Translations under genes and position numbers: made by a program
The notes under the pieces: model-generated
Told to the model about the DNA's origin: nothing
Databases searched by the model: none
The model's input: the letters and a program-made list of their open reading frames with translations, nothing else
NCBI RefSeq assembly: GCF_020520425.1
Contig: NC_079487.1
Location: forward strand, 133,694,385 to 133,758,384
Length of the DNA: 64,000 nucleotides
From: Spinacia oleracea
Lineage: Eukaryota; Streptophyta; Magnoliopsida; Caryophyllales; Amaranthaceae
Direction of reading: 5' to 3'
Shown here: piece after piece, positions 1,140 through 23,769 of the stretch
How the letters are laid out: each line of letters starts with the position of its first letter
Numbering within the stretch: position 1 is the stretch's first letter

Positions 1140-1391
1140 TTATTCGATAATCATGGACATAGTCCTGCTAAGCTCTAGCCTCCTATGCTTCTGTCGAATA
1201 AAAACCTCGGCTTCACAATCAACATCCCCTTCACATTTCTTTTTATCGCCATTCTTGATCGCGCTCTCCACCTTATCGTGGTTGTTCGTGTAAGGAGACA
1301 ACATGTAGGAGAAGTAACTCTCACTTTCATCTATGCTATGAATGTTATTATTGTTGTTGTTGAGGTTGGATTTCGGGTGCTTCATTTCCAC
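1140..1391 (-). CDS. Small DUF761-like protein, paralogue a
   Basis: An intronless frame of 83 aa whose function is unknown. It has an Asn run (about residues 11-16), an acidic block DESESYFSYMLSPY (about 21-34), a basic middle, and the C-terminal block DVDCEAEVFIRQKHRRLELS (about 56-75). The terminal block resembles the DUF761 (cotton fibre expressed protein) C-terminus, a plant family of unclear function. No signal peptide or membrane segment is visible, so a cytosolic or nuclear location is likely. The closest relative in the window is the gene at 7869-8141, sharing the K-H/Q-P-K-S-N start, the Asn run and D-C-E-A-E-V-F-I-R-Q-K. A TATA-like run lies about 85 bases upstream. Conservation across six paralogues, despite differing linkers, argues that the frame is real. 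The overlapping plus-strand frame 1185-1403 is a shadow. Confidence 0.8.
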   Translation of the reverse strand: MEMKHPKSNLNNNNNNIHSIDESESYFSYMLSPYTNNHDKVESAIKNGDKKKCEGDVDCEAEVFIRQKHRRLELSRTMSMIIE

Positions 1392-1470
1392 TCGCTCTTT
1401 TAGCTTCTTCTTTTTAATTTGATCGATTTTATATAAGTCGAATGAATGAATTTATATACAAACTAAGTCC

Positions 1471-1480
1471 TATATATATA
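1471..1480 (-). promoter_or_regulatory. TATA-box candidate for small gene a
   Basis: An alternating TA run about 80 bases upstream of the ATG at 1391 on the minus strand. The corresponding site of the sister gene (8194-8203) is a better TATA match, and the sequence between TATA and ATG is related in the two genes (both contain ACTTAGTTTGTAT-like or CTAGTTTGTAT-like sequence). Confidence 0.5.
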
Positions 1481-1588
1481 GAGAATATGCAAGCTAAGCT
1501 AAGATAAGAAATTATTAATGATTGTATGGTTGCTATTAAAAGTATGATTTATTGAAGGGAATCTAATGCCCTTTGAATTTGCTTTTAT

Positions 1589-1602
1589 AGATTTTACGTG
1601 GG
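1589..1602 (-). promoter_or_regulatory. ACGTG element shared with small gene d
   Basis: The bases GATTTTACGTGG (plus-strand reading) lie about 200 bases upstream of gene a. The same 12 bases occur at 8215-8226, about 75 bases upstream of sister gene d. ACGTG is the core of G-box/ABRE sites bound by bZIP and bHLH factors. Retention of the block in both promoters is seen directly; regulation by light or ABA is inference. Confidence 0.45.
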
Positions 1603-2238
1603 CATAACGTATAACACTTCCCGTCAAAAAGGGGAATAATAGATTGAATAACAGTTGATTTTCAAGTTAAGATGGCTAGTTGAATATATAGATATAATGA
1701 GGAAAAAGAATATATTAGGTTTTGCTTTATTCCTTGATTGAATTTCCCCCATGTTACCAACTAGTGGATACCAATGCAAGTTGTAACTAATTTCAAAACC
1801 TTGAGGTAGAGGAATATGCATGAACGCCTTTCTAGCCTGTCCAAAACGAAAACTAGCTGCGCTGTACAAAATAATTCACATGTGAGTTGGGACTAGTTGT
1901 CTTACATTGAAGAAATTGATGAAGGATAACTAACTTAATTATAAGTCTAGCTAGTGGGTTACAGGTTACTCCTATATCAGCAATTTAAGTGTTCGGATGG
2001 AACCCTACTAGACTGCCCTGTAGGCTGTAGGTGGTCGTGAGGGCTTATATTTAGCCCCTTTTTAATATTTATCAAGATACAACTATATATATTTCTAGTG
2101 AATTTCAAGCACAATGAATTATGCATGCACGGATGCACCACTAGTGAATAATATAAATGTCAATAACCTAAAATTCACATTTATCTAGTGATAATTTTTC
2201 TAATTATATATACATCCATAATTCCATATTACTTCGTA

Positions 2239-2592
2239 CGAAAATGATAAAGGTCGCAACATGCGACCTTTAAGCCGTGTTACAATGATGACATGACAGA
2301 TTTATGTGTCATGATTTAAACTGGAAACTAAAATATTTAATTTATATATCCTATTTTAAATGTTTCAAAAAAAAGCTAGGAAAATCTTAATATTCTAATT
2401 TGTTTCCTTATTTATACCGACTACCTTATTTACATACTTCGTATTTTCATAGTAAAAATATTGCATTGATAGTAAAAATATTATGATGACTTTTAGCTTA
2501 CGTGTCGCCTATATGTACCATTTAAACTGCGACACGTACGTAAGATTGCGACAACTAAATGTTGTCGCAACTTGCGACCTTTATCATCATCC
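2239..2592 (+). mobile_element. MITE family A, full copy with 9-bp target duplication
   Basis: A 354-bp element. The left end reads CGAAAATGATAAAGGTCGCA and the right end, reverse-complemented, reads GGATGATGATAAAGGTCGCA. It is flanked on both sides by TACTTCGTA (2230-2238 and 2593-2601). Each end carries its own small palindrome around GGTCGCAA/TTGCGACC. No coding capacity. The 9-bp duplication is typical of Mutator-like elements, so this is a probable MULE-derived MITE. Relatives lie at 1-171, 7009-7204 and 35428-35612. Confidence 0.85.
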
Positions 2593-2938
2593 TACTTCGT
2601 ATATCCTCTTATTGAAATTTTAGAAGCTTCAATGTTTGTTTTAATTCAATTTCCCTAACCTTTATGAAGTAATCACGCGCGTCACAACCAAAAAAGTGTA
2701 ACTATTACTCTATTAGGCACATCTTATTAAAACACTATTATAGAAATCTAACAAAGCATTTTCTAAAACCAATTAACATTCAGAATAGACGACGCCTATT
2801 GCTTTTTTTTAATTATCTAGAAAATTTATAGAAATTGGTAAATGTCAAAAAAGGGAGGGAGTTATTTATAGATTTAATTTCGAATAAATTTTAATATAGA
2901 AAAATAAAACTAAAGTTGAACCAAAACACATGCACACC

Positions 2939-2946
2939 TATAAATT
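2939..2946 (+). promoter_or_regulatory. TATA box of small gene b
   Basis: TATAAATT lies 106 bases upstream of the ATG at 3045. The spacing (108 bases) and surrounding sequence, including a downstream CATCxTTCACAA block, match the promoter of paralogue c at 6247-6254, so the two promoters are homologous. Confidence 0.6.
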
Positions 2947-3044
2947 AACCGTCGAAGGTCCCTTATTTTCTCATCTTTCACAATCCCGAAATATCCAAGT
3001 ATTATAAATTAAATTTATTTACATTAAACTCAAATTAAGAGAAA

Positions 3045-3344
3045 ATGTCGTGGTACACGAAATCAAGTAAGGTGGTAAGGACAGAGAGTATGTTAGATGA
3101 ATATAACATATATTTCTCTCATGTCTTGTCCCCTTTACAAAAGAAGCAGCAACGTATCAATGCTGAGCGTACAACCGCAGCGGCGAAGGCGCACCACCAC
3201 AACCACCACCACCACCACCAGGATGGAGGTAAGAGGGTGGCAGAAAAAGGGTGTGAAAATGTGGATGATGAAGCTGAGAAGTTTATTAGGAAGAAGCATC
3301 AGAAGTTTGAGCTCAGCATTTGGAACTCTACCCATACTAAATGA
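3045..3344 (+). CDS. Small DUF761-like protein, paralogue b
   Basis: An intronless 99-aa frame; function unknown. Residues 9-14 (KVVRTE) and 15-30 (SMLDEYNIYFSHVLSP) form the conserved N-terminal block. The linker contains a histidine-rich tract (about residues 50-59) encoded by CAC/CAT repeats. The C-terminal block, from NVDDEAEKFIRKKHQKFELS (about 72-91), resembles DUF761. It is closest to paralogue c at 6355-6645: the N- and C-terminal blocks are nearly identical but the linkers differ. The ATG is the first in frame after the TATA box and aligns with that of paralogue c. Two overlapping frames (3097-3357 plus, 3135-3353 minus) are shadows. The His tract could bind metal or could be a neutral repeat expansion. 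Confidence 0.82.
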   Translation: MSWYTKSSKVVRTESMLDEYNIYFSHVLSPLQKKQQRINAERTTAAAKAHHHNHHHHHQDGGKRVAEKGCENVDDEAEKFIRKKHQKFELSIWNSTHTK

Positions 3345-6246
3345 TGCATGCATGTGAAACTATGTCCAAAAAAATGATGTGAAACATTTTTTATTTTTAA
3401 TTTGTATATTTTGGATAAGAAGGATGTGAATTTGCTTTTTTTTTTTATATATATAAAATTTGTTTTTTTCTTTAAAATACGTATTGGATGTATTTGGACA
3501 ATGATTTAAGTTTAATCAATCTGTTTAGGCTTACAAATACAGTGTACAAGTGTGAAGTGTATAGTTGTTCCCCTCGTGATACCGGCCTTAATTCTTATGT
3601 TTTTTTTTCTTCTTATATCTCTTAAAAAATAATGTACAAGTACGGATTACGTGCTTATTCTGATTAATAAAAATATCAGTGTTTTTCCTTCAATTAAATG
3701 TGAACTTTAACTAATTAGATCAATGATGTTTACAATGGTCCTATTCTTTTGAATTTTATATATTTCAGTTCAGTTTAACTTCTTTCGGTTCATTTCAGTT
3801 CCAAAGAAATCGCTCATCTTTCTTTGAATTAGTTAATTTTATTCTTAATATTTGTAATTATTATAGTTATTATTACTTAATCTTATACATTATTATCATT
3901 ATATATTACTACTATTGTTATTATAATAGTGTCAATATTAAATATTATTATTTTATTTTATTTTGAATTAAATATTAAATATTATTTATTGCTCGTTTAT
4001 TTCAGTTAGTTAAATAAAGCTCATAAAAAAAGGGCTATGTCTATATATTGTTTTTCCATAAAATAATTATGTGACGTATAAGGTGGACAATTCAAAATTT
4101 CAGTTGACTGAGTTTCACAACCTAAAGTCGACAAGAGTCAATGCTCATCTGCATGTTATGAACCGGATTGAAAATTGTTTATGTACATGCAACATGCTTG
4201 CTTGTTTCTGGAAGCTACTGTTCAACTTAGCACGTCTGCACCTAGTTCATGCCACTCTTCTATAAATGAGACTTATGCACATATCGTCTCATCATCTCTT
4301 ATGTGCCAAGCTCGTGTCTTTTTTCTATAAATGAGGTTCATACTGCCTCCGTTTCAAAAAGATCTTTATAACTACTATTTGCACGGACTCCAATGCAATA
4401 TTTAACTACTAATATATCCAATTTCGTATATGAAAAAATTATAAAAATTTCCGAGACCAATCTAACAAGATCTTACATGTAACGTTTGGATGTATATAAT
4501 GGTTAAAATTTACGGTCAAAGTTTTTATACTTTGGACACGTTTTCCAATATGTAAAGAACTTTGTGAAACGGATGTAGTATATAGTTCTTCTCAATTCTC
4601 GTGTGTTGAACTCGTGCCTCTTTTGTATTAATGAGGCACGTGTACGACCCGTCTCATGGGTCAGGCTCGATCATGTCTCTCTTTATTGAGGCTCATACAC
4701 TGCACAACTCATTTCATGTGCCACATCGGGCTAGTTTGTGCCATGTTAAGAAGCCGGCCAATTGTGTTCTTCAAATTTCTAAAATGATGCCCATGCATGC
4801 ACACTAGTACACTACCATGGCCAATTGACGTGCATGTCGTGTCGGGCTTATAGCATGCAGGTCCGGCCATGTTATGTCGGACCAATTTATGATCGGGCCG
4901 TGGCAGCCTGACCATGCCCAAGTGCCCAACTCAATTTTTATTTATTGAGGGTCATGCCCAACTCTCTACTTAATTGATTCCTTTGTATCATTAGTTAAAT
5001 ACTTAACAATTTTAATTTCCAATTAAGAATGACATTTGAGATTGCCTGATCCTTACTGAATACTGATTCATGCATGCAAAAGATACGCCGTTATGATGAT
5101 TTATTAAGCGAGTGCATCTACAAAAAGATATTCACATTTTATTCCAAAGCGACAACACCAAAAATGTCGTTAAAATTAGGCAAATCTACACCATAACATC
5201 AAATTTCTACCAAATATAGTAAAAATAAATTGACAATTGCACCTTCTTTTTAATTTTGTATTTCTAAATGAAAAAAGTATTTTTAAAAAATCGACACTTT
5301 GCGGGCGTGACGCGGTATAGTTAACTAGATGTTAATGGATTATCTTGAATCTATGGAGTTATTCTTTAAACAAATGAAGCAATTTAATTAGCAAAAACAT
5401 ACTGGAATTGCTAATTAGGCGGCAGCCTAGAACACTAAATTAAAATTCTAACCAAACTTTTTTTTTAAAGCAAGATTCCCTAGAACACGGGCGGTGCCTC
5501 CTTTTCGTTATAATTTTCTCAAATTATTTCAATGATATGACTGGATTCATTCCATGGCTCGGCTAATATGCCACATAAAGCTAATTAAATTAAAGAAGGA
5601 ATGTCTCAAGCTAATTAATCTAAGTTCGAACTAAAAATAAAAAAAAAAAATATTAAGTATGCTTTTGAAATTCTCTAGAGTATATACTAGCCTAATTATT
5701 ATAATTACTATATTAGATCCCGTGCACGCACGGATTTTAATCATTTTTTAACAAAATATTTAACTGAATATCCCCCAAACTACTGTATAGTAATAACATT
5801 TTTAACATATTCATTTAAATTTATTCATCTAATATGCATATTTAAAATACTAATATGGTAATTTGACCAAAATATTGAGTGATATATTTTCTATTATTAA
5901 TATAGCGATTTGACTAAAATATTACCAATTTAGAATAATTATTTCTACGTCGTATCTATTATTTCCATAATTTATAAACTAAATTTTGTTTACATACATA
6001 AATAGTTTAATTTATAAAAAAGGTAAAGAATAAAAATAAAACAAAACAGATACACTTTTTGGGAAAATGATTTTTGACAGGAAAAAATCGCACCAGGAAT
6101 TGACACATATCATTTCTGATGTATCTTTTATTATATAGTAATAGATTTGGATGGATTTAGAAATCAAATAAATTAAATAATCTAGAAAGAGCGCAAAAAC
6201 GTGTGTAGCCAATTAACTTGAACAAAAATTGAGCTAAAATCTCACG
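3345..6246. other. Intergenic stretch with one MITE, no gene seen
   Basis: This holds AT-rich 3' flank of gene b, low-complexity TTATTA sequence around 3840-3980, the Stowaway-like element at 4343-4578, and around 4250-4930 several degenerate copies of a TATAAATGAGGCTCAT-like phrase plus the syllable TGTGCCA. Frames at 4071-4265, 4709-4921 and 6012-6212 show no known motif. No RNA gene found. Confidence 0.55.
4343..4578. mobile_element. Stowaway-like MITE
   Basis: A 236-bp element with inverted ends CTGCCTCCGTTTCA / TGAAACGGATGTAG, flanked by TA on both sides (4341-4342, 4579-4580). Terminal CTCCxTCCGT and a TA target duplication are typical of Stowaway elements of the Tc1/mariner group. No coding capacity. 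Confidence 0.75.
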
Positions 6247-6254
6247 TATAAATA
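6247..6254 (+). promoter_or_regulatory. TATA box of small gene c
   Basis: TATAAATA lies 108 bases upstream of the ATG at 6355, preceded directly by CACG (a CACGTA motif spans 6243-6248). The position and flanks match the promoter of gene b. Confidence 0.65.
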
Positions 6255-6354
6255 TGGCTATTTAGGTCTCTTAATTTATCATCCTTCACAAAACTACAAT
6301 AATTAATCACATTTAACTCAAATTAAGCTAGATAGTCGAGAAATTAAATCGAGA

Positions 6355-6645
6355 ATGTCATCATCAAAGTGGAGTACAAGTAAGGTTGTTCGTACAGAGA
6401 GTATATTAGATGAATATAAAATATATTTCTCGCATGTATTGTCGCCATGGAAGAAGAATAAGAAGCAGCCCATCCATGGTGAACGTTACAAGAACGCGAC
6501 GAAACAGCAACATCAACAGCAGCAGCAGCATCACATTGGTTATAGTAGAGTTGCAGAAAAAAGGTATGAAAGTGTGGATGATGAAGCTGACAAGTTTATT
6601 AGAAAGAAGCATCAGAAATTTGAGCTAAGCCTTTGGAAGTATTAA
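6355..6645 (+). CDS. Small DUF761-like protein, paralogue c
   Basis: An intronless 96-aa frame; function unknown. The N-terminal block SILDEYKIYFSHVLSP (about residues 15-30) is nearly identical to that of gene b. The linker is glutamine-rich (about residues 51-61, CAG/CAA repeats) where gene b is histidine-rich, which fits different expansion of a CA-rich triplet tract. The C-terminal block SVDDEADKFIRKKHQKFELS (about 72-91) is DUF761-like and is followed by four or five variable residues before the stop. The start aligns with that of gene b. No signal peptide or membrane segment. The minus-strand frame 6406-6612 and plus-strand frame 6410-6628 are shadows. Confidence 0.82.
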   Translation: MSSSKWSTSKVVRTESILDEYKIYFSHVLSPWKKNKKQPIHGERYKNATKQQHQQQQQHHIGYSRVAEKRYESVDDEADKFIRKKHQKFELSLWKY

Positions 6646-7008
6646 TTAAATAGCGTGGAATACGTATGTATAAATGTACGCAGTACATGCGTAATCACGT
6701 ATTTGAATACCAAGTATAATTTTCACTTGTGTGATCGAAAGTTTAATTGTTGTAAATTATCAATAAAACTACGTAACTTTCAGTAAATTGAACGTGATAT
6801 ATTGATTAGATTAACCATGTTCGTGAGATCGATCATGGTGTGTTAATACTAATTAAAAACTCTTCGATATTATCCAGTTTCGAAAATAAAATATAAGTTT
6901 AGTTTAGCGAATCACTTATAAGAATAAGTTTCATAAAATAAGAATAAGTTCAAATAAAATAAGCTAGAGATAACTTAAAGTCTAGCATATGTTCATCGAA
7001 TATCTTAA

Positions 7009-7204
7009 TATTCTAAGTTGTTTCCTTCCTTATATCAAATATCTTATTTACATATTTTCATAGTAAAAATATTGTATTCATAGAAAAAATATCATGATGA
7101 CGCATAACCTACGTGGCACTTATATGTATGTACCAATTAAACTCCGACACGTAAAATTGCGACAATTAAATGTTGTCGCAACTTGCGACCTTTATCATTT
7201 CACC
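7009..7204 (+). mobile_element. MITE family A, right-half fragment
   Basis: Matches the right half of the element at 2239-2592, from TCTTAATATTCTAA through CATAGTAAAAATATTG, GACACGTAA and TTGTCGCAACTTGCGACC to the terminal TTTATCAT. The left half is missing, so no target duplication can be scored. It lies between small genes c and d. Confidence 0.75.
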
Positions 7205-7520
7205 TGGTTTTCACTAACCTTTAACCACATACGTGGTATTATATTTATTAAGGACTCATCTTGATGGAAATCCAGCGAAGAGCAGCTTCAAGTCATCCAA
7301 GTAAACAACGCAATTTTAAGTTTTGCGGACCGAAAACATACATCTTTAACCTCAAAATGAAATTGAATTTAATCAATCTTGATGGTAATTCAAGAGTTTG
7401 AACTCATCGTGATGTTTGTGAATTAAATTTGATTCAATTGACGCAACGGGATTCAAGAACCCACGTACTACTATAATTTGATTCAAATATTGATGAAAAT
7501 GAGATTGAATCTCAAAATCC

Positions 7521-7755
7521 ATAAGTAAAAGCTTTCAACAAAACATTTGCAATGAAATTCATTCATAGTTCAAAATTCGAATATATTTCAAGAACAAGTC
7601 ACAATTCTTACAAAACAATAGCATAAAATAAAAAATCAATATATAAGTAAAAGCTTTCAACAAAACATTTGCAATGAAATTCAAAAATTCGAATATATTT
7701 CAAGAACAAGTCACAATTCTTACAAAACAATAGCATAAAATAAAAAATCAATATA
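7521..7755. repeat. Two-copy tandem repeat, about 122 and 113 bp
   Basis: The unit beginning ATAAGTAAAAGCTTTCAAC at 7521 is repeated from 7643, with near-identical sequence through ACAAGTCACAATTCTTAC and AATCAATAT. The second unit lacks about 10 bases around ATTCATAG. High similarity suggests a recent duplication. It lies downstream of gene d and encodes nothing. Confidence 0.85.
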
Positions 7756-7868
7756 AGGTAGTACAACTTATTGGCTACTAACTTGCATTTCACATGCATT
7801 ACAACTTACAAGTAACTAAAAATTAGGATGAATATCATTATTGAAACAACATGCATAATACAATAGTC

Positions 7869-8141
7869 TTATTCGATAATTATAAACGTAGAACTACTAA
7901 GCTCAAACTTCTTGCGCTTCTGTCGAATAAAAACCTCGGCCTCACAATCAATATCCCCTTGACATTTCTTATAATCACCATGCCTGATCGCGTTCTCCAC
8001 CTTGAAACGACTATCTAGTGGTTTCTTTTGGTGGATTTTCGAATCCCTATAAGGCGACAATATGTAAGGGAAGTAACTATCGCGTTCATCTAGGCTATAA
8101 ATGCTATTGTTGTTGTTAACATTAGATTTTGGCTGCTTCAT
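7869..8141 (-). CDS. Small DUF761-like protein, paralogue d
   Basis: An intronless frame, 90 aa from the ATG at 8141; function unknown. An upstream in-frame ATG at 8180 would add 13 residues but lies only 14 bases from the TATA box. The start at 8141 aligns with paralogue a (M-K-Q/H-P-K-S-N), so it is preferred. Features are an Asn run (about residues 9-12), the block DERDSYFPYILSPY (about 17-30), a basic middle with KVENAIRHGD, and DIDCEAEVFIRQKRKKFELS near the C-terminus, followed by a short hydrophobic tail T-F-I-I-I-E shared in form with gene a (M-S-M-I-I-E). The gene is convergent with gene c. Confidence 0.8.
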   Translation of the reverse strand: MKQPKSNVNNNNSIYSLDERDSYFPYILSPYRDSKIHQKKPLDSRFKVENAIRHGDYKKCQGDIDCEAEVFIRQKRKKFELSSSTFIIIE

Positions 8142-8193
8142 TTTCACTCGAGTTTTTATGATACAAATATATAAATACAAACTAGGACGAAGG

Positions 8194-8203
8194 CCTATTT
8201 ATA
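8194..8203 (-). promoter_or_regulatory. TATA box of small gene d
   Basis: TATAAATAGG on the minus strand, about 55 bases upstream of the preferred ATG at 8141. It is a strong plant TATA match and is the main reason for rejecting the ATG at 8180. Confidence 0.65.
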
Positions 8204-8214
8204 TGCAAGCAATC

Positions 8215-8226
8215 GATTTTACGTGG
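8215..8226 (-). promoter_or_regulatory. ACGTG element shared with small gene a
   Basis: GATTTTACGTGG, identical to 12 bases in the promoter of gene a. Further upstream the promoters also share TTCCTTGxTTGAATTTCCCC and CTAGC/CTAGT motifs (1729-1770 against 8380-8420), so the paralogous genes were copied together with regulatory sequence. Confidence 0.45.
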
Positions 8227-8478
8227 TAGTGTGTGTGGTACATGCAAATTGATTAATGATATGAGGGAATCCGATACCCTTTGCCCGTTTGAAAAATAGT
8301 TGCCGCCCAAAAGTAGCGTTGATTGTTGAATGAGTTTTTTCTTAAAGTAGAAAGTGTACACCATTTTAGGTATACCCTTTATTCCTTGTTTGAATTTCCC
8401 CTTGCTACCAGCTAGCCTACCATAAGATCTCTGGATATCCAAAGTAAGCTACGTATTACTTATTACTAATTCGAATAC

Positions 8479-8655
8479 CCGACCAATTGCGTGTTAGTTC
8501 AGTGGTGATATATTGTGGCTAAACTTGGTTGAGAGAACCCGTGTTCGATCCCCCGCAACAACAATTGGGAGTGGACTGGAACCTATCCACCTATAACTCG
8601 TCCCGAATCCGAATTAGCCATAAGGGTGAACCGGGTACTAACACAAAAAAATAAA
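8479..8655 (+). mobile_element. tRNA-derived SINE with target duplication
   Basis: A 177-bp element with a pol III A-box-like TTAGTTCAGTGGTGATA near 8494 and a B-box GTGTTCGATCCCC near 8541. A tRNA-unrelated body follows (AACCTATCCACC, CCGAATCCGAATTAGCC), ending in ACACAAAAAAATAAA. It is flanked by ACTAATTCGAATAC (8465-8478) and ACTAATTCAAATAC (8656-8669), a 14-bp target duplication with one mismatch. The structure is that of a plant SINE mobilised by LINE machinery. The family name is not assigned. Confidence 0.85.
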
Positions 8656-8669
8656 ACTAATTCAAATAC

Positions 8670-9825
8670 TTATGAAGGAGAGAATATCCCAAGTTACTCT
8701 GGAATTCTCAAAGTTGAATGTAGGTAGCAGCCTTTCAATTTCAACATCCTTCAGTCAATATTTCTTCGGTTTCTTGTATCATGCCCGATACCATCAACGA
8801 TCATCTGCACACTGGATAGCTTACCAAACGCAAACAATAATGGATGTCACTTAGATTAGTAAACAATGACTGCTCTAAGACTTTGTTCTCTTCATCTGGC
8901 CTGGTCTAGTCTGATTTTTCTAATTCTTGATCTGGTGTGGTATGGACTAGACGAATGTTTTATGTTAGTATTTTTTGCTTTATCTGGTATGATAATAATT
9001 TTTAGTCTTGTCAGAATTTTTCTGATGTGGTCTAATAAACAACACAATAAGAATAAGGTAAAGAAAACAGAGCTTAACTTCGGCACTAGTTACATACAGT
9101 ACTCTAAAACAAAATTACAATTCGCATTATACCCTTCTAGTTTTGTGGGAATCATCTTAGATCCACAAGGCCATGAGCCCATGACTAACAATAAGGCTCT
9201 TAACCCCTAACTAAAATTTAGTAACGAGGCGTGAGCCGCGTGAGGGGAGGGAGCAATAGCACGGATCGATCATACAATAATCCCCGAGTGGTTCTTAATC
9301 AATAACGAATATTAATTAATAGTACAAATCGACATAATCGTAAATAAATAGACTTTCAAGATATGCATTTATCAATTTTTATTCATTTAACCTCACATTT
9401 TTTGTTTCTTTTTTTATTTCCCTTTTTTTTAAAAGTTTTCCTACCGATTTAATTGCGAAATATTGGTGAATAGTGAAAGATCCACAAGCGAATTCAAATA
9501 AATCAGCTAATGCACAAAAGTTTATCAGTTGATGAACAAGGGGAAAGGTAATAATAATGTTCCTAAAACAAAAGAACATAAAACAAAAGTCTTGCATCAA
9601 AGAATCTTCAGATAATAAACCAATTCTTAAACAAGATCTGCATCGATCACAGCTGCCATCAGCAATAGAAACTCAGTTGCACATGCAAAAAAAGTCAGAA
9701 AGGAATACGATTCTGTTCAAAGGGAGCACAGTCAGTCATCTAAAAATTACTTCATATAATTAGATTTAGAAGTCTGTGACTCAAAAACAAAATCATCATC
9801 TACAACAAAATCATCAGCTACCAAA
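8670..9825. other. Intergenic stretch upstream of small gene e
   Basis: No gene recognised. Frames at 8672-8854, 8866-9210, 9379-9600 and 9557-9763 have no recognisable domain. A GC-richer patch around 9222-9275 (GAGGCGTGAGCCGCGTGAGG) stands out but matches nothing I know. The last 100 bases are the A-rich 5' flank of gene e, with repeated CAAAATCATCA. Confidence 0.5.
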
Positions 9826-10098
9826 ATGAATAACTTGAATGAAAGTGATTCTTATTTCGCGCACCTATTCTCAATGCCGAAGAAGAAGCACAAAGATGAA
9901 CCTCCAAAGGATCAAAGTGGGTATATCAAATATGCAGACAATATTGATTCTGATGCTGAAAAGTTCATACAGAGAAACCATAAGAATGGTGCTCAAAAGA
10001 AGCAAAAAGAAGAAGATGTTGATGCTGAAGCTGAGGAATTCATCCACCACGAGCACCTCAAGTTTGAACATAGCAAACGGATTGTCCACAAGTATTGA
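9826..10098 (+). CDS. Small DUF761-like protein e with doubled C-terminal motif
   Basis: An intronless 90-aa frame; function unknown. The N-terminal block is NESDSYFAHLFSMPKKK (about residues 5-21). The acidic motif occurs twice: NIDSDAEKFIQRNHK (about 39-53) and DVDAEAEEFIHHEHLKFEHS (about 64-83), separated by a short Lys/Gln-rich spacer. Only the second has the full K-F-E-H-S ending, so the first looks like a partial duplication. The gene at 23440 has the same doubled architecture, which makes these two a subgroup. Very charged; no signal peptide or membrane segment. The start is the only in-frame ATG before the conserved block. Overlapping frames 9839-10111 and 9871-10122 are shadows. Confidence 0.8.
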   Translation: MNNLNESDSYFAHLFSMPKKKHKDEPPKDQSGYIKYADNIDSDAEKFIQRNHKNGAQKKQKEEDVDAEAEEFIHHEHLKFEHSKRIVHKY

Positions 10099-10898
10099 TG
10101 ATGGAGATTGAATACTCAACATTCAACTACATAATAATGCCTGTCATTTTACTTGTCACTTTCAATCTTTTGAGAGATTCATCTTTTGCCAACTAAGCAC
10201 ACTCGTTTGTTTCACTAACGTTGTTTGCGGTCATCTGAAGTTATTTACTTTTCTTGTCTAATTCTGTTATTCATTAGACATCCTTCATCAGAGCCTCAAG
10301 GAGATCTCCAAAAGCATAACCTATATATGTTCTTGCATATTATCACCATATACTCGATTACTATCCGTAAAATATAGGTAAAACCATGATCGAATTTAAA
10401 AGCAAGGCAAGAACATATTTATTTCCTCCTTTTAAGAGTTACAGCCTAGACCTGTCAAAAATCGACCCGACCGGAAACCCGACCCTAAAACCGTTTGACA
10501 GGTCTAGACTTACAGCCTTACAGGTCATAGTCATAAGTAACAGAAACTTTGATGTGTGACCGGGGAGAACAAATGTTACAGAGAGAAGAAGTTTTTCATT
10601 GAAACATTAGAATACAATTCACTTAATTGAAAGATCAAAATGTGTATACTAACCTTCATTCAACAGTAAAATGATAGGTTTTCCGTTTGCTCTATACAAT
10701 GAAATATTCTTTCTTTCGGAAAGTTCACCTCAAAGTTAACTGAAGCAGCAAGAAGACATGTCCCGGTATTTCTGTAAAATCTAAAAAAATACAAAGATAC
10801 AAAATTAATCGAAACAGAGAAAAAGTTGACTGTCAACTACGAAAGGATTTGACAACAAATATGGTGCAAATGAAATCGTTCGGAAAATACCATCACGT
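10099..10898. other. Intergenic between small gene e and ispE 3' end
   Basis: Convergent 3' flanks of a plus-strand and a minus-strand gene. It contains the 63-bp mini-element at 10447-10509. The stretch from about 10620 is probably the ispE 3' UTR. No other gene seen. Confidence 0.5.
10447..10509. mobile_element. 63-bp hAT-like mini-element
   Basis: Ends TAGACCTGTCAAA and TTTGACAGGTCTAGA form a near-perfect inverted repeat around a core rich in CCCGACC. The same 8 bases TTACAGCC flank both sides (10439-10446, 10510-10517), as expected for a hAT-type insertion. Two similar mini-elements lie at 41116-41247 and 46458-46540. Confidence 0.7.
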
Positions 10899-14695: not shown

Positions 14696-17380
14696 TTTTG
14701 CTCACTGGTATCAGAGGCAAAGGGGCTTCAGTTCAGTTCATGCCAATTTTTGCAAAAGAAGACGTTTCTTTTCTTGTTTTTTTCTCCCACCGGTGCAAAC
14801 TTACCGCAGCCCGGCCCCCACCAATAGTTAGTGGGGTTGAGCCGGCGAGGTTAAGGTCGGTGCAGGTAAAAAATTGACTAGACATAAAATGTTTATTTTT
14901 TCAAATGGTTAAAATAGGTCAGATAAAATAGTTGGGGGGGCAATAACGAGAAAGAAATAAGAAAGGGAAAATATATAAAGGACCACAAATAAAAATAGGA
15001 AATGGCAGTTGAGAGTTGAGACGAGTAAAATGACACAGAATTAGATTTTGGGGTCCTTGAGGAAAGAAATGCCCATGCATTTCAAAAATGTAAACTTAAC
15101 TTGCTTAGACTCGTATTCTCCTTTGACACTATATATGTACTCTGTAATAAATTTTATACAAGGTCAATATGTAGGTGCCATGTTGTGTCGAAGATTGGGA
15201 AAGCTGACACTCGACACTCTCTGTCAACCAAAGTGTCGAAGTAACATTTGTAAACAAGTGAGGGCATTTTATGGTTAATTGAGGTTAGTAACTATTATAA
15301 AACATGATTGTCTAAGCTTTAAACCACAAAAATGATAGACATTTTTGTGTGTTAGAGTATGCATTTAACAAGTTAGTCCCTTATGATTTCTGGTAAGTCG
15401 GGTTATAGGCATTTTCAAAAGTTATTTCGCAATTTTTTCTGATCATTGTAACGGAAAATAAACTCTTTAGATCATAACTTAACTTATAGTTGTAAATGTT
15501 TTTCATCTACTTCAATAAAACCTCATATCCTCTATACGTAGACCTAATTTACAAATAGTTGTTGAACCACATAATATTTGTTTTCTTTGTTTATTTTTAT
15601 TGCTCTCGCTACAACACATTTATTAGTACTCCGCAATTATTTGAATTAGAGTCAGGATGAAGCCCAACATAATGGCCTGTATAGCGAAATTCGATAACGA
15701 ACTTTCTAATGGGTACTTGTGGATAGTATTGGTCCCACTTCCGAGGATATGTAGGATTGAAAACAAATTGAGTCGAGTACTATCATGTTCATCTTATTTT
15801 TGCGAGCTCGAGTGCGAGTCCAAGCCCGAGCTTTCAACCGAGCTCAAAAAGTACGTTCAAGCTTTGTTCGTTCAAAGGGTTTTGTGTTCGTAAACGGCTC
15901 GCTTATTAATCGGCGCGAGTTTATAAACAAACATTTTCCCCTCAAATGAGATTTGCGCTTTAGAGTTTAACCATTTGAAAACATAAATTGAAATGTACAC
16001 TAATTTAGCAATATAAATTCAACTTTAAAAATACTTTTTTCTGTGATAAAATAATTATGTTGCTAATTTGATTATGAAAATAAATAGATGAGCTTGTTCA
16101 TACACTTAAATGAACAAGCATATATATGTTCATGTTCAAGCTTGTGTATTAACGGAGGAGCTTCAAAAGTTGTTCAAGTTCGGCTCATTTTTATTAGACC
16201 GAGCCCGAGCCCGAGCCCAATTTGCACCTAAGGATATAGCGGGTCTGGCGGCTAACTTTCCCGGCGTTCCATCTTCCCCGTTTCATTTCTAAGGTTTTCA
16301 GCAATGAAACGCCACCCGTTTCGCAGTCGACGACTCACAGCACAAGCCGAAGCGCAGGATATGAAGCGAAATATTTGATTGTGAGCATCTTAAACCCTAA
16401 TTTCATGCTGTTTTTCAATTTAATTTTTTCTCAATTTCTTGATAAATCATAGTAATTGCAAAAATTAGCAAAGTTCATTGAATTTATCGATTCCTGAATT
16501 CAATTTTCCTTATCTCTTTCGGAACTGGATTGTTTGTATTATGATTCACTTACTGATTTTAGACTTCATTAATGATTCACTTACTGATCTAAGACTTCAT
16601 TAATTCGGGTTTCTGCGACTGATTTTTGGTGGATAGAGAGGATTTTGGCAATTATTAGCTTAGCTTTAGAGTTTTAACAAATTAGTTGTTTGCAATTCTA
16701 ATCACAACCAGTAAATGGTTAGTATTATGCTGACGCCTCATGCATATTTTGTGGATATGAAATGGTCACATTAAACGACCTTTTACTAGTGTGACGGCCT
16801 TTTCGAGACGTCCTAGAATAGAATCAGGGTGTTTGTATTGTATAGGAGTTTTCTCTGTATTATTTTCGGGTGGGAGCAAACCGTCTTTCGGGCTTGTATA
16901 GATGAAGTCATGTATGTTGTAGACCTTATCGGTAGGACGTTATCATCAAAACAAGGACAATGTTCGTACATAGGGAAATAGCAAATTGATTATATTAGCT
17001 ATTGTGTACAAAGTACAAACCGTAGAGTACTGGTTTTACCTAGCACTAGAAGAGTAATACGACTTTTTCAGTTAGATAAAAGACGAGAATACATTGGCAT
17101 TACTGATTGAAGTTAAAATCATGTGGGCGAGTTGGTAGAATGTGGTATGGCTGTCTTGGTGGGGTAAATAATCAGCTGAGAGCCTGGGTAATGGGAAAGA
17201 ATTTGATGATGAATTGCATAATCTAGGATATTATGAAAGGGTTCATATAGAACAACATTAGTATCCTACAGTTGAAGAAGGTTGTTTGACCCATGAACAT
17301 CATTCGATTGATATTGGGTGCAAAAGTTATGCTCAAATAAATGACATGTGATGAAAAGAATGAAGCTGATAACCTATTGT
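14696..17380. other. Intergenic stretch, ispE promoter side
   Basis: About 14700-14900 is the ispE 5' flank. From about 15750 to 16210 there are phrases rich in CGAGCTCGAGC and CGAGCCCGAGCC (a tandem run near 16199-16218) typical of decayed short elements. Around 16270-16400 a GC-richer patch ends at a possible donor. Frames at 14662-14877, 15048-15278, 15657-15893 and 16110-16292 lack recognisable domains. From 16400 to 17380 I see nothing definite. Confidence 0.45.
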
Positions 17381-19620
17381 TGCTCGTACACCAATGGTAC
17401 TACCATGGCCGGAAGTACTGTTCCCTTCAGTTCATTGTCTAGAAGAACATTGTTTGGCTTAAGATCACAATGAATCAAAGGAGTTATGCCAGCATAGAAG
17501 CAAAATCAAGTGCATATCTGAAGATTACCTTTTTTTGACCCTTTTTGAGCCTCATCTCCATTGGCAACTGGATGTAACCACTCTTATAAGCTACTGGTAG
17601 GCTTGAACTCATAAAATGGAGGTTTAAAACCATTACCTTGATAGTTAGCGCTAGAGCATGTTGTGACATCTTCACAAGGTTCTGATATCTAACATTTCCT
17701 AATGCTTCACACTCTATTTTTGGGTGCTCGTTGGAGGTTGAGCACCTTCACAGCAATAGGGGATCATTTATGGAGGATCCTTTTGCAAACAGATGCAGCT
17801 ACCCACACCAAACCAGAATTTCCGGAGAGAATCAATTTGTGGCTCTGACCCCTCTGTGGAGTTCCAAGTAGGTTATTTGTAAAAGCGAGTGCATGGCATA
17901 GACTTGATGCTTGTTTCTGTATTTCAGCAGATGTAGGAAGACATAACAGTGAAATTACTTCCAGAAACCTTATAGAATAGCAATGGCCAATTTTGCTTTG
18001 CTAGACAATCTTTCTTGTTGCTTCTCTTAAGGCCACATGGAGGAATATGAAGCCCATGTATCCCTCAACAGATTTTACTGTTTCCCATAATTAAAATTGT
18101 GCTCCTTTAAAATCTTTATCAACTGGAACTTTGCCTTCAATGCCATAGTTAGACAGGTCTAAATAAAACAAGAGTTCTCAGAAATTCTAGGCTTTCCCAA
18201 GGTAACTTGTTGCGGGAAATTTCTAGGATCCAAAGACCTTTTAATGTACTCAAAGTTGAAGGGACAGGCGGGGATAGGCCCTTGGATGAAGTTTCCCTTC
18301 ATGTATATGTAATTTAGACTTGTACAGCTCGTTAGTCTGCTCAGTATCTCACCCAATAACTTTTTTATCAGAAATATCCAGTATGCCTAAGTCTTTCAAC
18401 TGACCAACTATTGTTGCCTTGTTGGGAGGGGGCCAGTTAGTTGATTCTGAGAGAAATCCAGATATATTGACAAGGATGTAAGGTTGATTACCTCTGGGGG
18501 CAAGAGACTGACCAACTTCTGTTAGGGACTTGGGAGGGTGCCAATTAGTTGATTCTGAGATAAACCCAGATATATTGACAAGGATCTAAGGCTGATGTCG
18601 AAGGAAAGATCAAAAGCTGCAAATATAGGATTTTATCTTCCGTTGAAGTCTGTTTAACCTGGCAACGTTCTTAGAGGTGCTGGAATCTCCCCGGAGAGGC
18701 AAAGAGCTTGTTTTGGTAAAAGGTCATCACTACCAGATTTTGCAGGTTTCCTAAGGTCCCTGGAATAGTTCCTGAGAGTTTATTATTATCTAAATGTAAA
18801 TTGTTAAGCTGTCAAGATTCTGAATACAGGTCGTAATTCTGCCAGAGATATGATTCTTCTCCAACATCAATTTTTTGAGTTTGAGAGACAAATGCTTAAT
18901 GCATTTAGGTAAAACACCTTCAAGATAGTTGTCATTTGTTTTCACGATTAGAAAATCTGTGGCATTACTCAATGAGAAAACAAAGTTTTAACCAAATTTC
19001 TCCCCTGCAATTAGAGATACTGTAGATTTAAAGCATAAGACAGAGAAGAGGGATTTATGAAAAAGTCTGTTGGAAGATGCCCCTGGAGTTGATTATCCCC
19101 TATATCATAATAGAGAAGGGACTGAAAGTTCAGGGAAGGACAGTTCCAGACAAGTGCTTTGCACCAAGTCCCCAAAAATGTAAGTTGTTTAAGTTGGCTA
19201 AATTGGCTTAGAGAATCAGGGATATTACCTATCAACTTGTTTACTTCTGCTGAGAGAGTGCGCAGCGAAGATAAATTTCAGAAAGAGGGATTTCTCCTGT
19301 TAGGTGGTTCTTGCTCAGTGACAAAAAAATGAAGTTTTGACTAGGAGCCCAACTCCTTGTGGATCTGTCCTACAAGGTTATTATTGATTAAACGTTTTAA
19401 GCTTAGAGCACCTAGATAGATTTGGTGGAATTTCATCACTTGGTGAATTATTGTACTGGTATAGGATTTGCAGCCTCTGCAAATAGCTGTTACCTGGGAC
19501 CTGGGGGGCTTCGATGGCTGCAATTATTGTTTTCAACTGGTATCTTTGAAGAGCTTAATTTTCAATGTGTGGATATGGAGCCTGCCAATTGCAAGGAATT
19601 GAGTTTCAATTTGGAGACTC
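17381..19620 (-). pseudogene. Decayed LRR receptor-like kinase (LRR-XII type)
   Basis: On the minus strand the pieces follow receptor-kinase order. Leucine-rich repeats lie at about 18159-19620, with segments such as IGNIPDSLSQFSQLKQL, VLPKCIKHLSLKLKKL and SCTSLNYIYMKGNFIQGPIP. A juxtamembrane DLSNYGIEGKVPVDKDFKGA is near 18100-18150. A kinase N-lobe remnant (NSGLVWVAAS, AVKVLNLQ) is near 17720-17830, and a catalytic-loop remnant (PLIHCDLKPNNVLLDNE) near 17430-17470. Frames change repeatedly, stops interrupt the LRRs, and the transmembrane and most of the kinase domain are missing or unreadable, so no full receptor can be made. A 60-bp LRR segment is duplicated (18429-18490, 18535-18597). Function would have been surface pattern or peptide recognition. 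A hydrophobic frame at 21357-21563 could be unrelated. Confidence 0.8.
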
Positions 19621-20397
19621 TTTGATGGCGATAGTCACCAGTAATAACTTAACACTTGCGGGTATGGACTGTATTATTCCATGAGCTTATAACCCCTGAC
19701 GGGTCAGCTGTTATCTTATCCTTGAATTCAAGCAAGGCCAGCCGATTGGTCCTGTTTAATCCCATTTAACCTGATGTTAAGTAGATGAGGATGTGCTGGT
19801 GATAAAATATGCCAGGATTCTCAGAAAGGATGTCCACAGGCATGGAGCACCCGTACGCAAAGTTTTAGAATGCCACATGTAACCTGAGTGACTAGACTGT
19901 AATAAGAGATAAATACTGTTCCACTGTGGGACTCTTGGTTCCTGGAACTTTGGAAGTGGGAGATAATGGAGGAAACACCCTTCTTTTCAAAATGGAGGTA
20001 TTGGTGTATTACAAGGAGGAACTAGCTCAATTATTTTGAAAGCAAAACATCTTTTTCTCTGACATGATCCAGGTGTCTTCTTACGCGGCGTCGCTGAGAT
20101 GCTTTCGGAAAAGTTTGTAGGTTGGATTGTGGAAATGAAGACTAGAAGTAGGTTTGAACTTTGTCTAAAGATACTCCATGTGTTGATTTTCCTGTCTGTG
20201 AAAGTCCTTTGCCTTATATATCTCCCAAATTTACGGGCAATGTAATTTTCCTTCTGGACTGATACGTGAACTCGTGAAGGCATGTGATGTGACATTGCAG
20301 GCAACTTACAAGGTTAGATCACTGTAATACCACTTGTGGAGAGGTTGACCCTGGTAAATCATTTTCGGTGCCATGGAGCTAGACCAGTGAGCTTACC
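19621..20397. other. Intergenic, flank of the LRR pseudogene
   Basis: Noncoding by inspection. The minus-strand frame 19987-20304 has no recognisable domain. It may include unreadable remains of the pseudogene's 5' end. Confidence 0.4.
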
Positions 20398-20530
20398 ATT
20401 GAAATTTTGGGGTCATTGGCATGAAAGCATCTGAATTACCATAACCATGTTTTGGGGTCATTGGCATGAAATTTTGGGGTCATTGGCATGAAATTTTGGG
20501 GTCATTGGCATGAAATTTTGGGGTCATTCT
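20398..20530. repeat. 22-bp minisatellite, about five units
   Basis: The unit GAAATTTTGGGGTCATTGGCAT occurs in head-to-tail copies at about 20460-20527 and once at about 20398-20425. The first copy is separated by a 35-bp spacer. Near-identical units suggest recent slippage. Confidence 0.85.
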
Positions 20531-23439
20531 TAATCAAAATACGCTATATGACATAAAATAGGCACATAGCAGTGAAACTTTTGGATAGTCAAGATGTATC
20601 AACCTTACACTAACCACATGGAGACTACCATAGAGTTTTCTGTTCCTGAAATAATTGCTGCATAGTAATTCCTCGAAAGTTGGAAAGGAGATGATAACTG
20701 ATTAGGGTTATTTGCTGATAGGAGATTTTGTGATCTGTTTTAGATTTCTAGGAAATAATATTATTGCTGTATAGATTTTCATTATGGTGAATTTGTTTAT
20801 TGTTCTTTAGGCTGGCTTAAAAGAGTTAGCATGGATTGGTAGTCTCTCTAGTTATGTAGACCGATCATTATGCTGGTTTCTGCTGCCTGAGATGCCTCTT
20901 CTGCCTGATTGTTGCAATCAATTACTGCAGTTTCCTTATATCTCTTTTGCTTTTATAGAAGAGCTTGCCCTGCACAGATTACATCTTTTCTTTTCCCGGT
21001 GCTATGCAGACTTGCAGTCAACTGAGTTCCAGAGTCCCGCGCGCAACCTTGTGGAATTTCATAGTAGTATCAACTGTCTTGGGTTCAGGGAGTGAATGTA
21101 TTTAGGAAACCCTTTTTCCTTCTTTTTTCTTTTTTGGTTTCTTGTGGATGAAATGGAGCATACACGTGCACGGAGAGGTATGTTCAAGTGTTCAACTAAT
21201 CTGGAACAAAAATATGATAGGCACTAGATTTTTCTCTGACTTGGTCCATGACTGAAAAGTTTGTGGCTTAGAAGTATCAAACTAATATACTGAAAGAAGT
21301 TTTGGACTTATCAAAGATGATCTGGCCAGAATAAGTCTTTTCATTATATAAATCACTTAATTACCTTCTTGGCTAAACTGCCGACACAGATATCTTAAGA
21401 TAAATCTGCAAGGTCCTTTGACTTCCAATTCCCAAGTTTTGCAGGCACCGCAACTTTCTATCTGAGTTGTTAGATTAATGGAAATGATGTAGCGGGCTGG
21501 AAAACTGTAGACTGCGATAATGGAAATGATGGCCCAACTAAGAAACAAGGCCAGCTGAGCCATCTTTTCTAACTGCGTGTGTTTTGGAGTAATTAGGCTT
21601 TTGTGATGTACAAAATCAATGATAAGTTACTTTGTATACTATAATCTTAATGTAGGACTCTGAAGTTCAGTTCTGGGGGGCAAGACACACTAGTGAGTAG
21701 TGAATACACAGATTGCGAATAGATGCTCAGCATGTTCTATTAGCAAATACACTGATTTTGATGTGTTGATATCACCAGATTTCTCACTTTGGCTACAGAA
21801 AAGTCTGCATAGCAAGTTCATCACTTGTAGCCTCTGAACTATTGCACTATCATTGGATGAATTCTGGTGTCTTTACCCCCCCCCCCCTTATGTTTTAGCT
21901 CTTATACGCTAGCAGCTTCCGTGTTTTGCCATTGATTTTCCAGTTTTTAATACCTATATTTGGTTTACATTATCCTAATTGATTAATCTCCTATTCTTAA
22001 TGTTTGGTTTATGTATCAGATACAGATGACCCACATTATTCATAAGATATAAGATATGGTAGTTCGGACCGGCTTTAGAATACCTAAGAACTATATCTTG
22101 TATCAGTTCTTTAGTTTTTATATTTATCTGATAAGCCACTTGTGATTTAATAGTTCAGTCAATTTTAGATTATGTTGCTATCTCTATTGAATTTTGGAAA
22201 TAGTCACTATTGATTGGTCATCATGAATCTTTAATGACAGTACGAGAAGCATAAGTGTGTAACATTCATTGGATATTTCAATCCAATATTAACTTTCAAA
22301 GTATACCCAAAACGTCCTTAGAAGAACCCCTAACATGACCAAAGTGCCCCCGATATCGGACTGACAGTCCAAAACTTTAACTTATGTTAGAGTTTTGTTA
22401 TTCTTTACTACGAGTATGTCTTAACGTCCCTTTTGCTTTCATTTCATCAAGAAAGATAGTATTATGAAATATTTCTTTGATGTAATATTTTTAATGTTCG
22501 TTTTTTTATTTGGTCTGACAGGCCACATTTGAAGCGTTGCTACTCATGGCTTCTGGTTTGATCCATTTAATGTAGAACTTTGCAACAATCTTCCTCGGGA
22601 TAACGTTTCTTCCAGAGTTCCAGGCCAGATCTGCAGCATTTAGGTACTGATTAGTTGGGATTCCTTATTGTTTTTAGGGAAATAGAATATTGATATAGTG
22701 TAGATTTTTCCCTTTTTTTAATAATAAAGGACGGTCCCCTACTGATTTGAATTGATAAGAACGTTACTTAAGAGTTCTTAATCTCCCTGTTTTGCAACAA
22801 AATTCCATACCTAAAAGTCCTTGCATACCTACAAAAGTAAAAGCAAACCCTTATTGATGCTTATTGACCCATACATATCTTAACTTTGCTCTGGTAAAAA
22901 AAAAACAATACTTTTATAGGTATGCGAAAGTGACTAAAATTGTTTTTAATTAGGAATCTTAACAAAAGTTGTGTGCAGCTCAGCTTCTAGTATGATCTTT
23001 AAACACTTTCGTATTGGATGAAGTTAACCAACAATCTGTGATTGATCGGAATATATCTAACTTGATAATGACAGTGCAATATTGATTAGTGTATTACCTA
23101 ATATTGCTGCTAGGTACTTTTTCAAGATTTATCTGAACATTCTTGTGTATGCGAAAGAGTTATCGTGTTGTACAGAGTTAAATCTCCTACACTTGGATTT
23201 ATTCTTTAGAGAATCATATACGAAAAGTAAAGTTATATTCCTTGCCTTTCCTGTTTAAGGAAGCATAATCTAGGTCTCATTAATGGAAACTATGATTTTA
23301 GTGTACATGAAGTTTCAACATAACTGCCCAATATTGTTTTCAGGAATATCATGCTAAACTGCTAAAATTAAAATTCTATGCATGTAAACTTATACGTGAA
23401 TGACTGTGTATCAGTGTATACAATATATATATGTGAGAC
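20531..23439. other. Long intergenic stretch before small gene f
   Basis: No gene recognised. Frames at 20892-21095 and 21357-21563 have no known motif. A homopolymer of about 11 C lies near 21877-21887. A segment at 22522-22643 is bounded by TTTGGTCTGACAG and AG/GTACTG and could be an untranslated exon. TTGTTTTCAG at about 23333-23342 could be the acceptor of the exon holding gene f. Confidence 0.4.
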
Positions 23440-23769
23440 ATGACTGTATTAAACGAGTATGACATATACTTCTCTCATTTGTTGTCTCCTCGCAGGAAAC
23501 TCAATGTCTCTAAATCTTCGAGCAATAGCAATACCAGCAAGTATGTGAAGAGAAATACTTGTCCTGGAAAATTTGAAGAAGATTTCGATATTGAGGCTGA
23601 GGAATATATCAAACAAAAGCTTAAGCGCATTATTATGGATGGCGATGTTGAACAAAAGGATAATGCTAGCAAGCAAGAAGAAGAAGAAGTCTATGTAGAT
23701 GCCAAAGCAGAGGAATTCATCAAGCAAAAGAAGTCAGAACTCAGCAAGGTCTACATGAATGTTGGGTAA
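23440..23769 (+). CDS. Small DUF761-like protein f with doubled C-terminal motif
   Basis: A 109-aa frame, intronless within the CDS; function unknown. The N-terminal block LNEYDIYFSHLLSPRRK (about residues 4-20) matches genes b and c. A Ser/Asn-rich linker follows. The acidic motif is present twice: DFDIEAEEYIKQKLKRI (about 48-64) and YVDAKAEEFIKQKKSELS (about 84-101). The doubled form links it to gene e, 13 kb away across ispE and the LRR pseudogene. The ATG at 23440 aligns with the paralogues. Unlike the others it may have a spliced 5' UTR, since a good acceptor lies about 98 bases upstream. Minus-strand frames 23449-23727 and 23475-23672 are shadows. Confidence 0.78.
   Translation: MTVLNEYDIYFSHLLSPRRKLNVSKSSSNSNTSKYVKRNTCPGKFEEDFDIEAEEYIKQKLKRIIMDGDVEQKDNASKQEEEEVYVDAKAEEFIKQKKSELSKVYMNVG

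What the first reader, a model, noticed from the sequence alone, without database searches (positions are those of the whole stretch)
1140..23769. Cluster of six small-protein genes with two conserved ends and unconstrained linkers
Six intronless genes (1140, 3045, 6355, 7869, 9826, 23440) encode 83-109 aa proteins with the same plan: an N-terminal acidic Y-F-S-H-x-L-S-P block, a linker that differs in length and composition (Asn, His, Gln or Ser rich), and a C-terminal acidic D-x-E-A-E-x-F-I-x-x-K-H-x-K-F-E-L-S block. The C-terminus resembles DUF761; I know of no described role for the N-terminal block. Two conserved ends on a free linker suggest two binding surfaces. Such local amplification fits a lineage-specific regulator or signalling family. 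The sequence pattern is seen; the role is inference.
Basis: partly seen in the sequence, partly recalled or inferred. Interest (0 to 1): 0.75.

Follow-up and report, generated by a model that had tools for sequence, protein, structure and literature searches.

The report
Array of small two-ended plant proteins
A plant genome, probably spinach, carries one row of fourteen related small genes whose proteins keep two short conserved pieces and vary much more between them; the C-terminal piece is a diverged relative of a known plant motif of unknown function, so this is a real but only moderately unusual gene family.

Summary
The six ORFs are real and look coding (81-109 aa). They are the right-hand part of a 14-member array over about 67 kb. 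In six own-genome protein searches every match with E below 0.01 lay in this array, except one 178-bp fragment on contig C5.

A TATA motif lies within 150 nt of the ATG in 13 of 14 genes, against 392 of 2000 random windows. The C-block is a diverged DUF761 core: 0 of 14 reach Pfam's cut-off, 12 of 14 score 12.4-21.1 bits; hhalign probability 93.8%. No Pfam model over its cut-off covers the N-block.

Best explanation: mostly disordered adaptors with two docking segments, one repeatable. Helices are weakly predicted; binding is untested. Neighbouring genes suggest a link to Arabidopsis AT1G24575, active in florigen-making companion cells (PMC12575000): a lead, not shown homology. New variant of a known kind; moderate interest.

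The parts
1140..1385 (-). Gene A5 (A type), 81 aa, single open frame
1293..1334 (-). N-block of 1140 (IDESESYFSYMLSP)
   Evidence: coordinates by arithmetic
1167..1226 (-). C-block of 1140 (DVDCEAEVFIRQKHRRLELS); DUF761 17.1 bits, cut-off 22
   Evidence: coordinates by arithmetic
3045..3344 (+). Gene B5 (B type), 99 aa, single open frame
3093..3134 (+). N-block of 3045 (LDEYNIYFSHVLSP)
   Evidence: coordinates by arithmetic
3258..3317 (+). C-block of 3045 (NVDDEAEKFIRKKHQKFELS); DUF761 15.5 bits, cut-off 22
   Evidence: coordinates by arithmetic
6355..6645 (+). Gene B6 (B type), 96 aa, single open frame
6406..6447 (+). N-block of 6355; weak AlphaFold2 helix at residues 15-24
   Evidence: coordinates by arithmetic
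6571..6630 (+). C-block of 6355; weak AlphaFold2 helix at residues 76-90; DUF761 16.6 bits, cut-off 22
   Evidence: coordinates by arithmetic
7869..8141 (-). Gene A6 (A type), 90 aa, single open frame
8052..8093 (-). N-block of 7869 (LDERDSYFPYILSP)
   Evidence: coordinates by arithmetic
7896..7955 (-). C-block of 7869; no Pfam match at E <= 10
   Evidence: coordinates by arithmetic
9826..10098 (+). Gene C1d (C type), 90 aa, doubled C-block
9835..9879 (+). N-block of 9826 (LNESDSYFAHLFSMP)
   Evidence: coordinates by arithmetic
9940..9984 (+). First C-block of 9826 (NIDSDAEKFIQRNHK)
   Evidence: coordinates by arithmetic
10015..10074 (+). Second C-block of 9826 (DVDAEAEEFIHHEHLKFEHS)
   Evidence: coordinates by arithmetic
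23440..23769 (+). Gene C2d (C type), 109 aa, doubled C-block
23449..23490 (+). N-block of 23440 (LNEYDIYFSHLLSP)
   Evidence: coordinates by arithmetic
23581..23631 (+). First C-block of 23440
   Evidence: coordinates by arithmetic
23692..23745 (+). Second C-block of 23440
   Evidence: coordinates by arithmetic

Best explanation
The six genes belong to one 14-gene array that makes small proteins related to the DUF761 family. Each protein is mostly disordered and carries two short docking segments: a family-specific N-block (L-D/N-E-x-x-x-Y-F-S-x-x-L-S-P, in many members followed by basic residues) and a C-block that is a shortened, diverged DUF761 core. I think they act as intracellular adaptors: the N-block binds one partner, the C-block another, and the linker is a spacer whose exact length and make-up matter little. 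Two C-blocks instead of one, as in 4 of 14, would raise the avidity for the second partner. Shown: the array, coding-type selection, the distant DUF761 relationship, the doubling. Weakly supported: helical nature of the blocks and disorder of the rest. Inferred: binding, avidity, intracellular location (N-termini are polar to the eye; no signal-peptide program was run). A lead only: that the array corresponds to Arabidopsis AT1G24575, which would put the function in phloem companion cells.
For: Array of 14. Omega below 1 in the six pairs bootstrapped: 0.36, 0.34, 0.17, 0.20, 0.50, 0.34; bootstraps at or above 1: at most 12 of 1000. Pooled pN/pS lower in both blocks than in the linker for A and B types. 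TATA motif in 13 of 14 upstream stretches versus 392 of 2000 random windows of the same 254 kb (windows not matched for composition). DUF761 relationship: hhalign probability 93.8, E 1.7e-7. Doubled C-block in 4 of 14. AlphaFold2 helices at the blocks, coil between N- and C-block. N-block queries matched only this locus at E < 0.01. Neighbours: DUF707, RING and PP2C over Pfam cut-off, which fits Arabidopsis loci named in papers together with recalled gene order.
Against: No transcript, protein or partner data could be consulted. AlphaFold2 confidence is low (mean pLDDT 57.4 and 64.4, pTM 0.21 and 0.22), with six rows only. Hydrophobic moments: 1 of 32 blocks above shuffles at p < 0.05. None of 14 members reaches the DUF761 cut-off, and 5 of 14 score no better than the best of 1400 shuffles against the own-genome DUF761 profile. 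In single pairs the blocks are not always slower: B2/B4 blocks 0.40 against rest 0.25, A1/A6 0.23 against 0.23. C1d has no TATA motif and C2d only one at -16, too close to the ATG. The AT1G24575 link rests on recalled gene order and on a hexamer resemblance found after the fact (16 of 5000 random hexamers score as well).
Confidence: 0.5

Rival explanations
1. Transcription-related small regulators: the basic stretch after the N-block is a nuclear localisation signal, and the blocks recruit or block transcription factors.
For: Basic runs follow the N-block in many members, such as FRRNKNKNKKRK and LRKMKKSKKPK.
Against: No Pfam model of a DNA-binding or repression domain over its cut-off; basic runs are weak evidence and 1140 has none directly after its N-block. 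No localisation program was run.
Confidence: 0.15
2. The array supplies decoys or guarded targets in immunity: DUF761-like proteins are touched by pathogen effectors, and the array diversifies.
For: DUF761 is the integrated domain of the rice receptor Pias-2 (PMC11496149, passages); the family is locally amplified.
Against: The same passage says that no direct binding of AVR-Pias to that domain was observed. Whole-protein selection is purifying in the pairs tested.
Confidence: 0.08
3. The proteins are precursors of peptide signals, with the C-block as the released peptide; doubled members would release two.
For: Short precursors, conserved end, variable middle and a repeated unit are also seen in peptide-precursor families (recalled).
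Against: N-termini are polar to the eye (no signal-peptide program was run); the N-block is at least as conserved as the C-block (pooled pN/pS 0.34 against 0.39 and 0.13 against 0.24), which a mere leader would not need.
Confidence: 0.06
4. By-products of tandem duplication without a needed function.
For: Large linker changes; two fragments exist.
Against: Omega well below 1; TATA motifs enriched. 14 full open frames against one extra 19-residue fragment in the 254 kb, though members were found as open frames in the first place.
Confidence: 0.05

Closest known systems
DUF761 family (Pfam PF05553, 'Cotton fibre expressed protein')
   Same: The C-block aligns over 25 columns with the D-x-x-A-D/E-x-F-I core of eight DUF761 segments of the same genome.
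   Different: Below the Pfam cut-off in 14 of 14; best stretches end at profile position 27 of 36 or earlier; the Q-R pair present in 7 of the 8 segments compared is lacking; proteins are 74-124 aa; the C-block can be doubled. I saw no N-block, by eye, in the ORFs printed for five DUF761 loci.
Arabidopsis AT1G24575 (small-protein gene active in florigen-producing companion cells, PMC12575000)
   Same: Its locus number adjoins AT1G24580, called RING in PMC9706435; a RING and a DUF707 gene also lie beside the array. Its C-terminal WMTKSA, read from a printed primer, resembles WISRSS of member B1.
   Different: Full sequence not seen; its first 13 residues (MVLGNSSSHKSHH) show no clear match. AT1G67865, expressed in the same cells, starts MLDKLIIGVAGG (hand translation of primers shown), unlike this family.
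Small adaptor proteins built of short motifs on a disordered chain (general kind, recalled)
   Same: Two conserved short segments and a variable spacer.
   Different: No partner is known here.

Membership tests
DUF761 (PF05553) | Score at or above the Pfam gathering cut-off of 22 bits | tested here: not met
   0 of 14; 12 of 14 score 12.4-21.1 bits, 2 of 14 (7869 and the leftmost member) have no match at E <= 10
DUF761 (PF05553) | Profile relationship to DUF761 segments of the same genome | tested here: met
   hhalign of 14 C-blocks against 8 segments: probability 93.8, E 1.7e-7, 25 columns. By hmmsearch the 14 proteins score 7.6-19.9 bits; 9 of 14 exceed the best of 1400 shuffles (10.9 bits), 5 of 14 do not
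DUF761 (PF05553) | Full 36-position domain | tested here: not met
   Best stretches end at profile position 27 or earlier in 12 of 12 matching members
Orthology with AT1G24575 | Shared neighbours | tested here: inconclusive
   Window: RING, DUF707, PP2C over Pfam cut-off; the sensor-kinase match is below cut-off (HATPase_c E 0.026). Arabidopsis side from passages in papers and recalled gene order; no paper held two of five neighbour locus names
Orthology with AT1G24575 | Full-length similarity with N- and C-block | not testable with these tools
   Only the ends can be read, from printed primers
Secreted peptide precursor | N-terminal signal peptide | not tested
   Polar N-termini by eye only

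The most novel reading that the evidence does not exclude
The array is a local expansion of an uncharacterised companion-cell small-protein family made beside florigen: two-ended, possibly phloem-mobile adaptors whose valency evolves by repeating the DUF761-like segment, giving one plant lineage fourteen tunable versions of what Arabidopsis keeps in one or few copies.
Probability: 0.12. Interest if true: 0.65.

Novelty: new variant of a known kind. Interest (0 to 1): 0.38.

Why it matters
DUF761 proteins are widespread in plants and, as far as I recall, have no accepted biochemical role. This family cuts the motif to a short core, pairs it with a second conserved block and repeats it in some members, so it is a natural series for asking what the motif binds. 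If the link to AT1G24575 holds, it would also place a DUF761-like protein in the cells that make florigen.

Tried and rejected
By-products without function: disfavoured by omega and TATA motifs. Amphipathic helices as an argument: 1 of 32 block tests under p 0.05, so not used. Fold search of the 6355 model in the PDB: 0 matches with E <= 10; the 23440 model was not searched. Sequence search of the PDB with the 14-row profile: one chain at E 0.34, taken as chance. Viral contigs: 35 pattern matches, none confirmed. The prokaryote genome collection was not scanned. Weak Pfam matches that overlap the N-block in one member each (XRN1_D2_D3 E 0.012, DUF7721 0.033, ArlX 0.054, Iwr1 0.064, MBTP1_N 0.08) are all below their cut-offs and taken as chance. 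Transposon capture of gene 1140: the inverted repeats around it look like parts of separate copies of a roughly 350-bp element that also occurs elsewhere in the array region, so capture is not needed. AT1G67865 as counterpart: its start does not fit. AT1G67860: sequence not seen; PMC7039010 calls it an Arabidopsis-specific gene (passages). Lists that merely name these loci: PMC4382300, PMC4094393. Five sequence strings of these proteins: 0 papers. DUF761: 34 papers hold the word, 22 hold PF05553 or the other names; no title or abstract start in these listings is about a small two-ended family, but I read passages of only two of them. The listing added nothing. The search for AT1G24575 with phloem and companion gave the two papers already known.
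Full report
What was checked. The six ORFs exist at the stated coordinates, each with ATG and stop. Lengths are 81, 99, 96, 90, 90 and 109 aa. The window is C1:133694385-133758384 of an 894-Mb genome in 242 contigs; the 24 DUF761 places found lie on contigs C1-C6. Size and six large contigs fit spinach; that is recall, not a result (the taxonomy call, 75, only gives the lineage of that name).

The array is larger than the window showed. I fetched 190 kb around the window and searched the joined 254 kb with a profile of the six proteins. Fourteen ORFs matched at E 9.8e-19 or better: the six themselves and eight new ones, all to the left; the next ORF had E 0.49. The 14 genes run from C1:133651444 to C1:133718153; the 97 kb to the left and 90 kb to the right that I had hold no more. 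Six own-genome protein searches (the last two with hybrid N-block peptides) placed every match with E below 0.01 in this array, except a piece on C5 that is 84% identical over 178 bp to the 9826 coding region and lacks both ends. Three further places elsewhere had E 2.1, 6.7 and 6.7. One 19-residue fragment lies inside the array. The genome tool scores only its best candidates, so distant copies could be missed.

Anatomy. I label three types: A (6 genes, with 1140 and 7869), B (6 genes, with 3045 and 6355) and C (9826, 23440). The tree separates the six A genes from the other eight (96/96), but only 3 of 11 inner branches are well supported and 23440 is a long branch among the B genes, so type C is a label, not a clade. 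Only Y, F (N-block) and A, I (C-block) are invariant in all 14 rows. Plan: variable start, N-block, linker of 18-43 residues before the first C-block, C-block, short tail. In 4 of 14 (two A genes, 9826, 23440) the C-block occurs twice. In the two A genes the first repeats agree at 0.80 and the second repeats at 0.80 over 15 columns; within one gene the two repeats agree at 0.60, within the other at 0.80. One doubling before the two genes split fits, but is not proven, and whether the doublings in 9826 and 23440 were separate events cannot be told from such short stretches.

Selection and expression signals. Nei-Gojobori omega with bootstrap: 1140/7869 0.36 (0.19-0.68), 3045/6355 0.34 (0.17-0.62), and 0.17, 0.20, 0.50, 0.34 for four more pairs chosen as close relatives. 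In the nine pairs all whole-protein values were 0.17-0.50; the one part-value above 1 that could be computed for a pair was that outside the blocks of 9826/23440 (1.13), a pair with overall dS 2.9. In B2/B4 the blocks were not slower than the rest (0.40 against 0.25) and in A1/A6 they were equal; pooled values are lower in the blocks than in the linker for both types. The pooled C-terminal tail of type B has pN/pS 2.06 on 67 codon comparisons, too little data to read. A TATA motif lies within 150 nt of the ATG in 13 of 14 genes (12 of 14 with one at -45 to -124), against 392 of 2000 random stretches of the same region, which were not matched for composition.

Relation to DUF761. Pfam finds DUF761 in 12 of 14 members, always under the cut-off of 22 bits. 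Against eight DUF761 segments of the same genome the 14 C-blocks align at hhalign probability 93.8, E 1.7e-7, over 25 columns ending at column 30 of 45. With hmmsearch, 9 of 14 members score above the best of 1400 shuffled proteins (10.9 bits) and 5 do not. The own-genome DUF761 search at E <= 0.001 listed 24 places, none in this array. I conclude: a diverged relative of DUF761, not a member by Pfam's rule.

Structure. AlphaFold2 on 6355 (six rows) gives helices 15-24 and 76-90 and coil elsewhere, mean pLDDT 57.4, pTM 0.21. On 23440 it gives helices 6-15 and 47-108, mean pLDDT 64.4, pTM 0.22, with residues 51-60 and 91-100, inside the two C-blocks, at 87. The long helix of the second model joins both C-blocks; with so shallow an alignment I do not lean on it.

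Neighbours and the Arabidopsis lead. To the right of the array lie a RING protein (26177-26632, -), a DUF707 gene (stretches between 31981 and 33119, -), a stretch with a sub-cut-off histidine-kinase ATPase match (47378-47785, -), a PP2C gene (stretches between 58058 and 59377, +) and a DUF868 gene (62641-63699, +). That the kinase-like gene is the chloroplast sensor kinase is my recall of its sequence. In Arabidopsis, AT1G67820 is listed as PP2C (PMC3917222, passage), At1g67840 is the chloroplast sensor kinase (PMC6949291, passage), At1g67850 is 'GT27R' or 'unknown protein' (PMC3675317 and PMC5134223, passages; that it is DUF707 is recalled), and AT1G24580 is called RING (PMC9706435, passage) or '1-C3H' (PMC2774341, passage). 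A second Arabidopsis block DUF707-small gene-RING at AT1G24570-24580 is recalled. AT1G24575 is one of eight genes whose promoter patterns overlap high FT signals in companion cells; over-expression gave no noticeable change of flowering time, though leaf number fell slightly (PMC12575000, passages and section 7). It is also among the genes in the reporter-validation figure of a stem atlas (PMC8136906, section 11 and passages; the text I read does not give its own tissue). Primers printed in PMC12575000 give its ends as MVLGNSSSHKSHH and, in the frame whose stop lies two bases before the primer end as in two sister primers checked, WMTKSA. The latter scores 20 against WISRSS of member B1; 16 of 5000 random hexamers, or 120 of 5000 that begin with W, do as well. 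This comparison was made after the fact and is a lead only.

How it most likely works. Two short conserved segments on a variable spacer, one of them repeatable and related to a motif of longer plant proteins, are best read as an adaptor with two docking segments. I put 0.5 on this. Partners, cells and process are unknown.

Verdict. The family is a new variant of a known kind.

Noticed in passing
C1:133687455-133687748 (L009:3071-3364) and window 3045-3344: These two genes share about 90.6% of their coding DNA in a match of 308 columns that ends at the coding borders. Upstream, the left gene resembles 6355 (z 8.8) rather than 3045 (z 0.9); downstream there is a weak local likeness to 3045 (z 5.7). 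Gene conversion limited to the coding region is one possible cause.
   Followed up: partly
window 2238-2608, -186 to 172, 6998-7198, and -36654 to -36292: Full or partial copies of a roughly 350-bp element whose ends read ATGATAAAGGTCGCA inverted, MITE-like.
   Followed up: partly
window 8482-8664: Repeat 84.7% identical to window -1335 to -1158; looks like a tRNA-derived SINE by eye.
   Followed up: no
C5:47064127-47064288 (L050): Dispersed fragment of the 9826 coding region, 84% over 178 bp, both ends missing.
   Followed up: partly
window 23300-23440: Gene 23440 has no well-placed TATA motif; a TTTTCAG|G stretch ending at 23343 could be the end of an intron in the 5' untranslated region (by eye).
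   Followed up: no
window -27109 to -26444: Block of overlapping direct repeats in the left part of the array region.
   Followed up: no
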